This document shows, piece after piece, positions 31,234-36,377 of a stretch of 47,712 nt of DNA (the stretch's first letter is position 1; each line of letters opens with the position of its first letter). Origin of the DNA: a virus; the IMG/VR virus record IMGVR_UViG_3300042866_002779, positions 1 through 47,712 of that record; one strand, written 5' to 3'. The notes under the pieces were generated by a model. The model searched no databases, was not told the origin of the DNA, and saw nothing but the letters and a program-made list of their open reading frames with translations. The translations under genes were made by a program, and so were the position numbers.

Positions 31234-31629
31234 CTAGTGGTATATTGTGGATGCACTAATAAACCCGTAGTCTTCTGGTCCATGCTGAACGCACAGTGTC
31301 TGGTAAAAACGATTTTTAACTCTTAAATTTCCATTTACTCCGCATGCTTCACAAATCAAATACGACCTCTTCTCAAACGGCGCGATAATTGCGCTAGTCC
31401 TGTAAACCAGAGCATCATTTGAAGGCTTAATGTAGTACCTTAGGCCTCCGAACTTTTGTTTTATTTGATAAATCTTATAGTTTGGGTCGAACGCAATTAA
31501 TGCATTGTGACATTCCTTTATTAAACCACCCCACCCTTCTCCAACCGCAATGTGATTATCGTACCCGTCCACAAAACGTGTGCGCAGAAATTCGAACTCT
31601 TCGGAGAGACCTATTTCTTTAAAGCTCAC
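31234..31629 (-). CDS. Zinc-finger-like conserved phage protein, 131 residues
   Basis: The GTG start overlaps the stop of the oxygenase gene upstream (GTGA). The order EGWGGLIKECHNAL, QIKQKFGGLRYY and LICEACGVNGNLRVKN with TLCVQH is a pattern I know from many phage and prophage proteins of unknown function. CEACG and the later LCxxH probably bind one zinc. It could bind nucleic acid or protein. It belongs to the minus-strand accessory operon. Confidence 0.7.
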   Translation of the reverse strand: MSFKEIGLSEEFEFLRTRFVDGYDNHIAVGEGWGGLIKECHNALIAFDPNYKIYQIKQKFGGLRYYIKPSNDALVYRTSAIIAPFEKRSYLICEACGVNGNLRVKNRFYQTLCVQHGPEDYGFISASTIYH

Positions 31630-32408
31630 ATCGCCTCCTCTTCAAAATTGAAATCAATCACATGTTCGTCCATGTATTTTCTTGGCGGAAGTCTATCTAT
31701 GGTTAGGATTCGCTTCACCCACCTATCGCTCCCATCATATTTTGGTTGAAACGGCTTTCTGCCATGTACAGCAACTCTGTTGTCTATAACCATAACTTCA
31801 CCAGACTTGAGCGCCACTTCTTTTGTGGTCTTTGATATTGCATCACGAACAGCGGAAAGAGTCGATTGCGCTTCTGTGGTCTTACCTCTCATTAACGCCC
31901 AATCAAATGTGAATACATCATGGCCGGCTTTGTCGCGAGAAAGAGGAGTTATTCCGAGAGTAAAATCCGGTTCCCCATCCATCATGAAGCTGTCATCCAA
32001 TGAAGTTGTGAAGTTTGGAGTTCGGAGAACATTTATCTGCTCTTCAGAAAGCTCGGAGACTATGTCATCAAGGGATGAGTATGTTGTCAGTGCTGTTTCG
32101 TCGCCGCGTAAACACATCAAAATTACATGTGTTGGCTTATACGGGTGAAAAGCCGTCTCGGTATGAAGATATAATTCAACTTTTGACGACGTAGATATTT
32201 GTTGGTTTTCGTTTTTATGCACAGGGACAATATTCTGAATCAGTCGCCCACCCTGTTCTTGTCGGTAACTTACTGGATATCCGTGGAATCCAGCGATTTC
32301 AATAAGGTTGGATGTGGCTTCCGGAGTCCGAGCGTCATCAATAATCGGAATCGCCGGGGTAGGCGGAATATTGCCGATATCGACATTTTTGATGATTTTT
32401 ACGGACAT
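31626..32408 (-). CDS. Clavaminate-synthase-like Fe(II)/2-oxoglutarate oxygenase
   Basis: This 260-residue protein matches the CAS/VioC/AsnO branch of non-haem iron oxygenases, which hydroxylate free or carrier-bound amino acids. Visible are GGRLIQNIVPV, the iron motif HTETAFHPY (His82, Glu84) with KPTHVILMCLRGD, then the distal His215 in VIDNRVAVHGRKPF and Arg229/Arg233 in DRWVKRIL for 2-oxoglutarate. All expected ligands are present, so it should be active. Its substrate is unknown. No biosynthetic cluster is nearby; neighbours are small phage genes and tRNAs. Possible roles are modifying a host metabolite or a protein side chain. It is shorter than typical family members (about 320-360), lacking part of the N-terminus. 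Confidence 0.85.
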   Translation of the reverse strand: MSVKIIKNVDIGNIPPTPAIPIIDDARTPEATSNLIEIAGFHGYPVSYRQEQGGRLIQNIVPVHKNENQQISTSSKVELYLHTETAFHPYKPTHVILMCLRGDETALTTYSSLDDIVSELSEEQINVLRTPNFTTSLDDSFMMDGEPDFTLGITPLSRDKAGHDVFTFDWALMRGKTTEAQSTLSAVRDAISKTTKEVALKSGEVMVIDNRVAVHGRKPFQPKYDGSDRWVKRILTIDRLPPRKYMDEHVIDFNFEEEAM

Positions 32409-32428
32409 AAATAGAACCTAGCAAAAAG

Positions 32429-32503
32429 TGGAGCCCTCGGTGGGAGTCGAACCCACGGCCACCTCATTACAAGTGAGGTGCTCTACCACTGAGCTACAAG
32501 GGC
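32429..32503 (-). tRNA. tRNA-Thr (anticodon TGT)
   Basis: The cloverleaf is complete: acceptor GCCCTTG with CGAGGGC, D-arm AGCTCAGTGGTAGAGC, anticodon stem CCTCA with TGAGG around loop CTTGTAA, and a T-arm with GGTTCGACTCC. CCA is encoded. It reads ACA, a frequent codon in this phage. Confidence 0.92.
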
Positions 32504-32520
32504 AGCCCTTAAAAATATAG

Positions 32521-32593
32521 TGCCTGGAGAGAGACTCGAACTCTCACTGGCGGCGTCCTAAGCGCCGTGCCTCTGCCATTGGGCTACCCAGAC
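32521..32593 (-). tRNA. tRNA with anticodon TAG (Leu codon CTA), class-I shape
   Basis: Acceptor GTCTGGG pairs with TCCAGGC (two wobbles), anticodon stem CGGCG with CGCCG around loop CTTAGGA, T-arm GAGAG-TTCGAGT-CTCTC, discriminator A. The variable loop is only 5 bases, whereas bacterial tRNA-Leu normally has a long variable arm. No CCA is encoded, unlike its neighbours. Identity is therefore uncertain. Confidence 0.75.
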
Positions 32594-32597
32594 TAGA

Positions 32598-32687
32598 TGG
32601 AGGAGCGGGAGGGATTTGAACCCCCGGTCCGCGCAAACGGACTCCTGTTTTCAAGACAGGTGCAATAAGCCTCTCTGCCACCGCTCC
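32598..32687 (-). tRNA. tRNA-Ser (anticodon TGA)
   Basis: A class II tRNA of 90 bases: acceptor GGAGCGG with CCGCTCC, anticodon stem CCTGT with ACAGG around loop CTTGAAA, a long variable arm with GTCCG and CGGAC, and encoded CCA. It reads TCA. Confidence 0.92.
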
Positions 32688-32697
32688 GACGCCTATG

Positions 32698-33474
32698 TTA
32701 TTTTCGGCGCTGAACAACCACCTTCTTTGCCTTCTTCTTAGGGGGCAAAGTCTTCTTATTGCTAGCAATTTCCTTATTTGCAGTAGCAACACTCAATGGA
32801 ACAGACTCAATTACTTGCATGGAAGCAAGGGAGGTGGTTGTCGTTGTTTCAACGATTACTGGTGCTTCACTTGGGATTGTTGGTACTTCAACTGGAGCAA
32901 CATCTAATTCTTCTGCTGGCCTTGGAGGAGCAACGGGCACAATAACTTGCGGAATAATTGTCGTCGTAGTGGTGGTCGTCTCGGGAATGTTCGTCGTAGT
33001 GGTGGAAGTAGCAATGGTGCCATTAAACTGACGACCAGTCGTTCCGTCACATGAGATATTGCAATCACCATTAGTCACAACTGGATTCGCGCTGGCTCCA
33101 ATAAGGGAGTAAATAGCAGAACGAGCCACGGACAAATCAATACCTTCGTACCAAATAGCTAGTGTGTAATTCGGGCGAAAGCCATTACCACCACTTCCGT
33201 CTCCGATACCAATGCCTACGTACTGGCACTTATCAAGGTAGTTATAGAAACCAGCAATCGCCATTCCCAAAGCCTTGTGCCCACCATTGCTGTAAGCAAC
33301 CAATCGTTGATATGCATCGGTTCCAACTTCTGTATCAATAATCGTAATCATTGAGGGGGCCAATGATGATGGAGCTTCTGTGTATTCGCCGCAATCTTGA
33401 GCGGTTGCCTCACTAGAGCCGAGCGTTGCAAACAAAAGGGCGGCAACTACAACTACCTTCTTCATGTTTCTCAT
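32698..33474 (-). CDS. Secreted Thr/Pro-rich protein, 258 residues
   Basis: The N-terminus has a signal peptide (MKKVVVVAALLFATLGSSEATA, cleavage after ATA likely). The exported domain (about 25-150) contains six Cys and SMITIIDTEVG, GGHKALGMAIAGFYNYLDKC, GIGIGDGSGGNGF and NISCDG segments. Then follow Thr-rich stretches (TTTTNIPETTTTTTTIIP) and Pro/Val-rich linkers, ending in a Lys-rich basic tail (KKTLPPKKKAKKVVVQRRK). Thr-rich linkers of this kind are common in secreted proteins of actinobacteria such as Acidimicrobiia. The function is unknown; the basic tail could hold it at the envelope. It is located between tRNA genes, so it may be a recently acquired cargo gene. Confidence 0.7.
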   Translation of the reverse strand: MRNMKKVVVVAALLFATLGSSEATAQDCGEYTEAPSSLAPSMITIIDTEVGTDAYQRLVAYSNGGHKALGMAIAGFYNYLDKCQYVGIGIGDGSGGNGFRPNYTLAIWYEGIDLSVARSAIYSLIGASANPVVTNGDCNISCDGTTGRQFNGTIATSTTTTNIPETTTTTTTIIPQVIVPVAPPRPAEELDVAPVEVPTIPSEAPVIVETTTTTSLASMQVIESVPLSVATANKEIASNKKTLPPKKKAKKVVVQRRK

Positions 33475-33537
33475 GATTTTCCTTTAAATTTGTGGTTTAG
33501 ATGTACCCTATCGGAAACAATTAAATAATCCACATAA

Positions 33538-33613
33538 TGGCTGGCGAGGTAGGGCTCGAACCTACGACCCAGGGATTAACAGTCCCTTGCTCTGCCAACT
33601 GAGCTACTCGCCA
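33538..33613 (-). tRNA. tRNA-Asn (anticodon GTT)
   Basis: Acceptor TGGCGAG with CTCGCCA, D-arm AGCTCAGTTGGCAGAGC, anticodon stem AGGGA with TCCCT around loop CTGTTAA, T-arm with GGTTCGAGCCC, discriminator G and encoded CCA. Confidence 0.92.
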
Positions 33614-33645
33614 AAAATATGGTTAATTTTTACACCTTCAATCAA

Positions 33646-34344
33646 CTATGGACATACCATTCCATTTTCAACCCATGCCTTATACGTGACAGGCATAGTT
33701 TGAGCCAAAACAATTTCAACACGCGTTGCATATCGGCGAATGTCCACCTGTGCAGACTTGTCTAGACGAAGAGATAAAAAATTCATTAACGAGCGAGCAT
33801 TTACCGTCCAATAAAACTGTGTGTACATTCCCATTGGCAAAACTGTTCGTGCAAGCTCTTTTGCAACGCCGTCATTAATCAATTCCTTGTAGGTGCCGTA
33901 CGCCATTTCGTTTATATTTTTAATTCTTTCAATAGTTCTATCGGCGACATCTTTTTCAACGGGGTCAAAGTGGTATGCGCCCGGTTTTCCAACCTGAGTT
34001 CTCACATCGTGCTCTGCAGGAACGAAAAACTCATCGTTGACCATACTGTATCGAGCTGAAAATTCATTAAATGAACCTATTCTGTGCCTAAACCATTCCC
34101 TAGCAACAAATATTGGACACTTAATATGGAATCTAAATGCATTGTGCTCAAAAGGAGTGCCATGTCTTTCGCGCATTAAGAAATTTATCAATCCTTTTGC
34201 TGCTTCATCAAGCTCCTCTTGGTGTCGCGCAAAAGATACACGTGCTGCATTGACAACCGACATATCGTCGGCCATATGTGCGTCTAGACGCACAAACCCA
34301 AACTCATCAATTTTTCTTTCTTTCACTTCCATTGCAGCCTCCAT
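33646..34344 (-). CDS. thyX: Flavin-dependent thymidylate synthase
   Basis: This 232-residue protein carries the ThyX motif RHRIGSFNEFSAR (Arg86 to Arg98), matching RHRxxSxNExSxR that binds FAD and dUMP. The fold-typical segments GTPFEHNAFRFHI and the C-terminal RYATRVEIVLAQTMP are present. It makes dTMP from dUMP using methylenetetrahydrofolate and NADPH. With the ribonucleotide reductase next to it and MazG on the other strand it forms the phage nucleotide supply. A second start (MEVKERK) five codons in is possible. Flanking tRNA genes lie at both ends of the reading frame. Confidence 0.96.
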   Translation of the reverse strand: MEAAMEVKERKIDEFGFVRLDAHMADDMSVVNAARVSFARHQEELDEAAKGLINFLMRERHGTPFEHNAFRFHIKCPIFVAREWFRHRIGSFNEFSARYSMVNDEFFVPAEHDVRTQVGKPGAYHFDPVEKDVADRTIERIKNINEMAYGTYKELINDGVAKELARTVLPMGMYTQFYWTVNARSLMNFLSLRLDKSAQVDIRRYATRVEIVLAQTMPVTYKAWVENGMVCP

Positions 34345-34359
34345 GATTGATGTGTTTGA

Positions 34360-34436
34360 TGGCGCGTCGGGTAGGACTCGAACCTACAACCTACAGATTA
34401 GAAGTCTGTTGCTCTATCCGATTGAGCTACCAACGC
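34360..34436 (-). tRNA. tRNA-Arg (anticodon TCT)
   Basis: Acceptor GCGTTGG with CCGACGC, D-arm AGCTCAATCGGATAGAGC, anticodon stem ACAGA with TCTGT around loop CTTCTAA, T-arm with GGTTCGAGTCC, discriminator G and encoded CCA. It reads AGA, which is heavily used in the phage genes and is usually rare in actinobacteria. Confidence 0.93.
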
Positions 34437-34448
34437 CTGCGTGGCCTA

Positions 34449-36377
34449 TTACTTTACAGGACAAGCACCAGTAGCGCAATCGTCAAGCGCAAGCAGTCCG
34501 TCAAAGGAATTTTGCACCAAAGGAATTGAAAAATCTATTTTTGATATCAGTTTTTGGTATTCCTCTTTGGTGATTTCTTCGTATGGCGGAAGCGGGAAGT
34601 TGTGGTCGCTGTGCAAAAGGAATGACACCGATTTGACGCCCTTGTCGTAGTTCTTGGACAACCATTCTTTGATTGAATCGAGCTCTTCCTTACGATAGTA
34701 GACGGTTACGGACACGGCGTTGTCCGCCCATACAGTTTGCATCTTCTTTACCCATTCAAGTTGCTCAACTGCTGTCATGCTTGCGGCCAGAACTGCACCC
34801 TCTGGCGATTCGCACGGAAAATCAACCACATATTTAGTGTGGTCTTCGCGACCGTCAATTCCAATATCCCACTGAACTTTATAACCGCGCTTACGGCAAC
34901 CATCGACCAATGGGTCTGATGAGCCAAAGCGCACACGTCGGATATAGTACTGCGCAAATCCTGGATGTATACCAGGCGTGTTGCCTGGGAGCAGCGCCAA
35001 GGTACCAGATGGCTGAACTGTTGTAAGGCGAACCGATTCTGGCCAATTATTTTCTGCCGAGTACTTTTTATCAAATTCACGGAGATTTATATACGCCTTA
35101 TCAAGCCACTCAATCTTTTCCTGCTCCACCTGCAAGATTCCAGTGACGCTCTGGCCAAGTCTTGCGTTCTTGCGAACAATCTCGGTTGTCTTTGCGTATG
35201 GGTAGTCAAGCCTGGTTATCTGTTTCTGCACCTTGTACAGCAACATTGATATTTCTTTTAGCTGTTCAAGTGATTCGACATTTGGCAAAAATATTGTCGC
35301 TAGATTGCATGACTCGCCATCTGCGAGAGCAATTTCCGCACATGGATTGAAGCCCTCAATGCTGTTGTCGACCATTCTTTCGCCTAGTCGGCCATAATTC
35401 CTTGCAAGCTTGCGATTAACAAGACCGTATGGCTCGCCTGAGCCGTCGTAACCCTTCCAGAGTTCTGTCATGATTTCTTCGTACGCATCTGCATAGATGG
35501 AGTTGTTGGAGTTAGCACGCCACGCTGGAACGCTGCCAGTTGACCAGTTCTTTGCTCGAATAAACAGAACGTCGTCTGGGTCACCAATTGCAATCTGTGC
35601 TGAACGACGTGATGAACCAGAAACAACGATGCGACCAATGATGTTGCAAATGTCGAGCACGTCAATTGAACGAAGCTTCTTGCCCTCGCGATTCTGCATT
35701 ACCTTGCATATGTCGGCAACTCCGTCAATTAATGCGCCTGGACCGGATGCGGTACCGCCGAACGTCTTCAATGGCGCGCCATATTCACGAATCAAAATTG
35801 TCGAGTATGAAAAAGACTTGCCAGTATCAAAGTATGACTTAAGAACTGCATGAAGGAGTCGCTTCCATCCTTGACGAGAGTCAGGAACGATAATGTCTGC
35901 GTCATTTGACCGCTCGTGAGTGATGACGACGCCTGGCTTAACTTTTGGTAGCTCGTGAATCTTCGAGCGCTCTACCGAGAATCCAACGCCGCCACCCAGC
36001 ATCAGGTATTCAAACAGCAATTCAAAATCTTCAATCGATTCAATATTCGTGAAGTAACAATTATTCAAAGAAGTTGCATTGAACTTCTTGACAAGCGGTG
36101 TGCCAAGTTGCCAAAGAGCACGCCCAGAAAGTGAGCAACGCAGGTTAAACATGTGGTCAAAAAGCTTTTCTGCTTCCTCTGGCGTAAATGGAACGCCAAT
36201 TTCAATTGCGCCATTAATTGCGCGGGTAATTGTTTCGGTCCACGTCTCATTGCGACCAGTTCCATCGACTGGGCGGCTGTATGTGCGCAGGTATACAACC
36301 TCGCCCAAACCACCGAAACCCCATGGTGTTTTTTTATCTGCGTAACTTGCGATGAAAGATGGGTCAAGAATAGACAT
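34449..36377 (-). CDS. nrdJ: Adenosylcobalamin-dependent (class II) ribonucleotide reductase
   Basis: This 642-residue enzyme reduces ribonucleotides to deoxyribonucleotides using coenzyme B12. It follows the monomeric triphosphate-reductase layout: NNCYFTNI (Cys107), the loop FNPCAEIALADGESCNL with active-site Cys346 and Glu348 and Cys357, TVQPSGTLALLPGNTPG, and the C-terminal relay pair in CATGACPVK (Cys634, Cys639). It is shorter than the Lactobacillus leichmannii enzyme (739 residues), mainly in the N-terminal region. It is independent of oxygen but needs host B12. The start is ATG with AAGGA about 14 bases upstream, rather far. Adjacent to ThyX, it supplies dNTPs for replication. Confidence 0.95.
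   Translation of the reverse strand: MSILDPSFIASYADKKTPWGFGGLGEVVYLRTYSRPVDGTGRNETWTETITRAINGAIEIGVPFTPEEAEKLFDHMFNLRCSLSGRALWQLGTPLVKKFNATSLNNCYFTNIESIEDFELLFEYLMLGGGVGFSVERSKIHELPKVKPGVVITHERSNDADIIVPDSRQGWKRLLHAVLKSYFDTGKSFSYSTILIREYGAPLKTFGGTASGPGALIDGVADICKVMQNREGKKLRSIDVLDICNIIGRIVVSGSSRRSAQIAIGDPDDVLFIRAKNWSTGSVPAWRANSNNSIYADAYEEIMTELWKGYDGSGEPYGLVNRKLARNYGRLGERMVDNSIEGFNPCAEIALADGESCNLATIFLPNVESLEQLKEISMLLYKVQKQITRLDYPYAKTTEIVRKNARLGQSVTGILQVEQEKIEWLDKAYINLREFDKKYSAENNWPESVRLTTVQPSGTLALLPGNTPGIHPGFAQYYIRRVRFGSSDPLVDGCRKRGYKVQWDIGIDGREDHTKYVVDFPCESPEGAVLAASMTAVEQLEWVKKMQTVWADNAVSVTVYYRKEELDSIKEWLSKNYDKGVKSVSFLLHSDHNFPLPPYEEITKEEYQKLISKIDFSIPLVQNSFDGLLALDDCATGACPVK

What the first reader, a model, noticed from the sequence alone, without database searches (positions are those of the whole stretch)
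32521..32593. tRNA with TAG anticodon but no long variable arm
The anticodon UAG reads the leucine codon CUA, and discriminator A fits leucine, yet the variable loop has only 5 bases. Bacterial leucyl tRNAs are class II. It also lacks encoded CCA unlike the other four tRNAs. It could be a degenerate leucine tRNA, or one charged with another amino acid, changing decoding of CUA.
Basis: partly seen in the sequence, partly recalled or inferred. Interest (0 to 1): 0.5.

Follow-up and report, generated by a model that had tools for sequence, protein, structure and literature searches.

The report
Short-armed leucine tRNA in a phage
A phage carries a leucine transfer RNA without the long extra arm expected of bacterial leucine tRNAs; it belongs to a widespread, little-noticed group shared by phages and some bacterial chromosomes, and it most likely reads CUA as ordinary leucine.

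Summary
In detail: window 32521-32593, minus strand, is a tRNA with anticodon UAG, a 5-base variable loop, A73 and no encoded CCA. The degenerate and code-changing readings are not supported. Its body (D arm TAGCCCAAYGGCAGAGGCA) recurs in many phages and in actinobacterial chromosomes. The E. coli leucine identity elements outside the long arm (A73, A15-U48, G18G19, A20a; review passages) are all present. Three MAG loci carry the same tRNA over positions 8-65; all differences lie in the acceptor stem. In four of five MAGs that carry this kind of tRNA-Leu(UAG), the CAA, UAA, CAG and GAG isoacceptors are class II and no class II UAG was found. CTA codons of the phage align mainly with Leu (53 of 79 modal) and are about five times commoner than in one such MAG. 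Best reading: a class I tRNA-Leu of actinobacterial kind that supplies CUA decoding. Charging and host are untested.

The parts
32521..32593 (-). class I tRNA-Leu(UAG), 73 nt, no encoded CCA
   Evidence: ARAGORN; Rfam RF00005 47.9 bits
32558..32560 (-). anticodon TAG (positions 34-36) in a 7-nt loop CTTAGGA
   Evidence: sequence; alignment
32546..32550 (-). 5-nt variable loop CCAGT (positions 44-48); U48 partner of A15
   Evidence: sequence; numbering as used
32569..32584 (-). D arm (positions 10-25): 3-bp stem, 13-22 unpaired, A14, A15, G18G19, A20a
   Evidence: sequence; same D arm in relatives
32521..32521 (-). discriminator base A73
   Evidence: 226 of 228 distinct relatives have A
32432..32503 (-). 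neighbouring tRNA-Thr(UGU), CCA encoded
32601..32687 (-). neighbouring tRNA-Ser(UGA), class II, CCA encoded, U73
33541..33613 (-). tRNA-Asn(GUU), CCA encoded
34363..34436 (-). tRNA-Arg(UCU), CCA encoded

Best explanation
It is a working leucine tRNA of class I shape, of the kind found in actinobacterial chromosomes, from which it probably came (direction inferred). The host leucyl-tRNA synthetase should charge it through A73 and the hinge elements A15-U48, G18G19 and A20a; by the review passages the long arm is not crucial for E. coli LeuRS. The host would add CCA. Loaded with leucine it reads CUA (and by wobble perhaps other CUN codons), which the phage uses far more than the MAG with the nearest tRNA does. 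Shown: gene, structure, relatives, leucine-only anticodons, class I as the only UAG isoacceptor found in four MAGs, codon skew. Inferred: transcription, charging, host, benefit.
For: Gene and structure. Kept in six related contigs, with a pair-keeping U2-G71 to U2-A71 change in some. Free-anticodon scans (parsed, recounted): viral 119 of 119 leucine anticodons (UAA 70, UAG 22, CAA 17, GAG 6, AAG 2, CAG 2); bacterial 120 of 120 (UAA 80, CAA 20, UAG 18, CAG 2). Acceptor, anticodon and T stem pairs kept in 213-228 of 228 distinct tRNAs. E. coli leucine identity elements: review passages. MAG loci L355, L358 and L310 identical at positions 8-65. MAGs G002, G003, G004, G005: Leu CAA, UAA, CAG and GAG are class II and UAG is class I; none of the 29 class-II-length Rfam matches of G001-G005 is UAG. 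Genes around L355 read as housekeeping (my naming from translations). CTA columns modal Leu 53 of 79. CTA is 152 of 1018 Leu codons in 30 phage ORFs that I chose against 287 of 9300 in 261 ORFs of G002; Fisher p 7e-48.
Against: No expression or charging data. CTA has the lowest share of Leu as modal residue of the six leucine codons (67% against 72-79%) and more Ile (13 of 79 against 34 of 466, p 0.015); ATA is one base away, so I read it as drift. Only 79 of 152 CTA codons could be scored. The CTA test in the host-like genomes is too small: 6 codons, 3 Leu. Single-sequence folding is unconvincing. Three of nine very close contigs lack the gene. The scan patterns fix the D arm and T loop, so the D-stem pairs are not tested, and relatedness of the 228 sequences is not corrected for. 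The host is inferred: the other four phage tRNAs are only 77-83% like their best G002 match of any kind. All MAGs are incomplete: G002 shows no tRNA-Trp, -Tyr or -His among its 41.
Confidence: 0.9

Rival explanations
1. The tRNA is charged with another amino acid and changes the meaning of CUA, as the yeast mitochondrial tRNA-Thr(UAG) does.
For: Class I shape with a leucine anticodon; precedents in yeast mitochondria and in a human tRNA-Leu-CAA gene close to tRNA-Met (paper passages); a slight Ile excess at CTA columns.
Against: The body occurs with six leucine anticodons and no other in the parsed scans; A73 in 226 of 228; 7-nt rather than 8-nt anticodon loop; CTA columns mainly Leu; the nearest non-leucine tRNA of G002 is 69% identical to the phage tRNA.
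Confidence: 0.03
2. A decayed class II leucine tRNA (pseudogene) that lost its arm and is not used.
For: No CCA; two G-U pairs in the acceptor stem; lowest Rfam score of the five; weak fold; absent from 3 of 9 very close contigs, and cousins L008, L097, L098 hold class II tRNA-Leu(UAG).
Against: Closest relatives are class I tRNAs of bacterial chromosomes; the class II Leu tRNAs of G002 are not among its four best matches there; stems kept by paired change over 228 sequences; kept in six related contigs.
Confidence: 0.05
3. A leucine tRNA whose main role is to escape a host tRNA-cutting defence: the acceptor stem differs from the MAG tRNA while the rest is identical.
For: All 6 (L355) or 8 (L310) differences lie in the acceptor stem.
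Against: No such nuclease was sought; the codon skew offers a simpler reason for keeping it; paired stem changes could be drift or recombination.
Confidence: 0.08

Closest known systems
Canonical class II bacterial tRNA-Leu
   Same: Leucine anticodon, A73, A15-U48, G18G19, A20a
   Different: Variable loop of 5 nt instead of a long arm
Cluster-encoded tRNA-Leu(TAG) with short variable loop in Mycobacterium mucogenicum and M. phocaicum (PMC6582537, passages)
   Same: Leu(TAG), short variable loop, in a tRNA gene cluster that the authors think may come from phages
   Different: There beside a normal class II isoacceptor; its sequence is in a supplement and was not seen here
Animal mitochondrial tRNA-Leu (PMC9976931, passages)
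   Same: Leucine tRNA without a long arm; A73 and A14 matter for the human one
   Different: Mitochondrial; [quoted passage not shown]
Yeast mitochondrial tRNA-Thr(UAG) (PMC7609411, passages)
   Same: UAG anticodon outside a class II tRNA-Leu frame
   Different: 8-nt anticodon loop and CUN read as Thr; here a 7-nt loop and CTA at leucine columns

Membership tests
Leucine-accepting bacterial tRNA (E. coli identity set) | Discriminator A73 | tested here: met
Leucine-accepting bacterial tRNA (E. coli identity set) | Levitt pair A15-U48 | tested here: met
   sequence; in relatives A-U or, with G15, mostly G-C
Leucine-accepting bacterial tRNA (E. coli identity set) | G18G19 and A20a in the D loop | tested here: met
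   sequence; list of elements from PMC9976931 passages
Leucine-accepting bacterial tRNA (E. coli identity set) | Large variable region (listed for bacteria in the review's table, though its text says it is not crucial in E. coli) | tested here: not met
   5 nt; review passages
Leucine-accepting bacterial tRNA (E. coli identity set) | Charging with leucine by LeuRS | not testable with these tools
   needs in vitro or in vivo assay
Class II tRNA | Variable arm of 10 or more nucleotides | tested here: not met
   5 nt
CUN-reassigning tRNA (yeast mt tRNA-Thr type) | 8-nt anticodon loop | tested here: not met
   7 nt
CUN-reassigning tRNA (yeast mt tRNA-Thr type) | CTA codons at columns of the other amino acid | tested here: not met
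   53 of 79 modal Leu, next Ile 13
Class I tRNA-Leu group (defined in this report, so the test is partly circular) | Body TAGCCCARYGGNAGAGGCA, 5-nt variable loop, A73, leucine anticodon | tested here: met

The most novel reading that the evidence does not exclude
Bacteria have a second structural kind of tRNA-Leu, class I, that moves between phages and chromosomes and has taken over one leucine isoacceptor in various Actinobacteria (UAG in several MAGs and in Nocardioides, UAA in Microbacterium, CAA in Streptomyces). If so, the rule that bacterial tRNA-Leu is class II is false, and LeuRS there works in vivo without the long arm.
Probability: 0.7. Interest if true: 0.65.

Novelty: new variant of a known kind. 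Interest (0 to 1): 0.5.

Why it matters
It contradicts a statement in a 2023 review that tRNA-Leu has a long arm everywhere but in animal mitochondria, and it offers a natural test of how LeuRS recognises its tRNA. It also warns that annotation which expects a long arm may flag real leucine tRNAs as isotype conflicts, and it removes a false lead to genetic-code change in phages.

Tried and rejected
Code change and pseudogene readings were tested and not supported. The CTA test in host-like MAG DNA against E. coli proteins was too small to decide: 6 CTA codons, 3 at Leu. A promoter scan of 31500-34500 found one site, on the plus strand, against 5.1 expected, so nothing is said of transcription. 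PHROGs named portal, major head, ribonucleotide reductase, thymidylate synthase, primase and an RNase E family; 8 of 15 proteins had no match.

The body is patchy among bacteria. The exact pattern matched 20 of 396 genomes of G002's phylum (G002 itself among them, and at least some others are genomes already seen). With two mismatches it matched 7 of 59 of its order: 3 UAG and 4 UAA. A class II pattern in the same 59 gave true class II UAG in 3 (G435, G440, G442), so class II UAG also exists in that order. A second class II pattern found UAA but not UAG in G002-G005, and neither in G001 and Nocardioides G450, where absence is therefore weak. Tool lists for G450-G452 were cut, so their leucine sets were not read in full.

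Ten paper searches gave one prior note of a short-armed Leu(TAG), PMC6582537. Passages of PMC9569102 and PMC6297222 added nothing. Papers outside the open library and supplements were not searched.

Full report
Observation. The window is a 47,712-base virus record. ARAGORN gives five tRNAs, all on the minus strand: Thr(tgt), Leu(tag), Ser(tga), Asn(gtt), Arg(tct). Rfam agrees; the Leu gene scores lowest, 47.9 bits against a threshold of 29. The Leu gene lacks CCA, the other four have it.

Relatives in phages. Relatives of the major head protein and of the thymidylate synthase were fetched from IMG/VR. The same tRNA was found in six contigs, in the same cluster; in four of them base 71 is A instead of G, turning U2-G71 into U2-A71. 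It is missing from three of the nine contigs with thymidylate synthase at least 97% identical (L088, L089, L090), so it is not fixed even among close kin. Cousins L008, L097 and L098 carry class II tRNA-Leu(UAG), and L062, L064 and L065 carry a class I tRNA-Leu(UAA) with nearly the same D arm. BLAST of the phage collection and fourteen short fetches show 73-78-nt tRNA-Leu genes in phages of Prochlorococcus, Synechococcus, Erwinia, Streptomyces, Mycobacterium, Rhodococcus, Pseudomonas, Rhizobium, Acinetobacter, Salmonella and Myxococcus; not all have exactly this body.

Which amino acid. I scanned IMG/VR with the D arm and T loop fixed and the anticodon free (stopped at 120 stretches). Recounted, the 119 loci L163-L281 give 119 of 119 leucine anticodons: UAA 70, UAG 22, CAA 17, GAG 6, AAG 2, CAG 2; the remaining stretch is L101, the window tRNA's own near-copy. 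U48, free in the pattern, is present in 119 of 119. The bacterial scan (also stopped at 120; R allowed at position 15) gives 120 of 120 leucine anticodons: UAA 80, CAA 20, UAG 18, CAG 2; 15-48 is A-U in 107, G-C in 12, G-G in 1. A sample of 396 genomes gives 20 of 20, but it partly repeats genomes. That no other amino acid appears is hard to explain unless the body means leucine.

Function by structure. Over 228 distinct tRNAs (some collected with anticodon-fixed patterns, so not used for the anticodon count) acceptor, anticodon and T stem pairs are kept in 213-228 of 228; for most of these pairs random re-pairing would give 0.38-0.74. Pairs 1-72, 52-62, 53-61, the D stem and 15-48 vary too little, or are fixed by the pattern, to say much (shuffled 0.83-1.00). 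A73 is present in 226, G in 2. The review passages name A73, A15-U48, G18G19 and A20a as essential in E. coli and say that variants without the long arm can still be active; its table nevertheless lists a large variable region for bacteria. The window tRNA has all the former and not the latter.

Chromosomal relatives. By record title 106 of the 120 loci are actinobacterial (titles), among them isolates and one record titled complete chromosome (L379); Planctomycetes, Chloroflexi and a few others make up the rest. L355 (titled Bifidobacterium breve, MAG), L358 (Actinomycetota MAG) and L310 (Acidimicrobiaceae MAG) match the window tRNA at all 58 positions 8-65; the six (L355) or eight (L310) differences all lie in the acceptor stem. 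L355 lies among genes whose translations I read as housekeeping, such as RNase PH, glutamate racemase and cysteine synthase (my naming, no search run). In that MAG (G002) I read all 41 Rfam tRNA matches: Leu CAA, UAA, CAG and GAG are class II, UAG class I. Reading the remaining class-II-length matches of the other four MAGs gives the same set in G003, G004 and G005; G001 shows only the class I UAG and no class II Leu, being the smallest. So none of 29 class-II-length tRNAs in five MAGs is Leu(UAG). The MAGs are incomplete (G002 shows no tRNA-Trp, -Tyr or -His), but the same gap in four of them is unlikely to be chance. Microbacterium G451 looks like the mirror: class II UAG (L543) and class I UAA. 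Nocardioides G450 has class I UAG and Streptomyces G452 class I CAA; the tRNA sets of these three were read only in part.

Decoding. In 30 window ORFs that I chose, CTA columns aligned with homologues at 30-85% identity have Leu as modal residue in 53 of 79 and Ile in 13; other leucine codons range from 54 of 75 to 62 of 78. The Ile excess is nominally significant (p 0.015); I report it against my reading. CTA makes 14.9% of leucine codons in the phage and 3.1% in 346 kb of G002. Other phage tRNAs fit: ACA, TCA and AGA are 43%, 30% and 32% of their families in the phage and 13%, 16% and 2% in G002 (shares). tRNA-Asn does not speak either way: it reads both codons, and AAC is 41% in the phage against 65% in G002. 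Supplementing rare host codons is the classical role given to phage tRNAs (recalled).

Literature. One paper notes a short-variable-loop tRNA-Leu(TAG) in a horizontally acquired mycobacterial cluster, beside a normal one (PMC6582537, passages). The tRNAscan-SE 2.0 paper discusses a human tRNA-Leu-CAA gene without the long arm that resembles tRNA-Met (PMC8450103, passages). In the ten searches listed under Tried and rejected I saw no description of chromosomal class I tRNA-Leu in Actinobacteria; that is a limit of the searches and library, not proof of absence.

Verdict. The surprise lies in the group, not in this gene.

Noticed in passing
window 32601: The phage tRNA-Ser(UGA) has U73, whereas the G002 tRNA-Ser(UGA) has G73 before its CCA.
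   Followed up: no
L151 62-137; L121 5930-6007: A second short tRNA-Leu body with a D arm like TGACGGGAAYTGGCATACCT occurs in phages, beside or instead of the body studied here.
   Followed up: no
window 32521-32593 against L355 and L310: All differences between phage and MAG tRNA lie in the acceptor stem; drift, recombination or escape from an acceptor-stem enzyme are possible.
   Followed up: partly
L355, record CAMAWR010000003.1: The record title names Bifidobacterium breve, but a 1.7-Mb MAG with a tRNA body identical to that of an Acidimicrobiaceae-titled MAG suggests a wrong label.
   Followed up: no
window 32698-33474, minus strand: ORF between the tRNA genes: 258 aa with a hydrophobic start like a signal peptide, Thr-rich stretches and a Lys-rich end (translation); no PHROGs match.
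   Followed up: no
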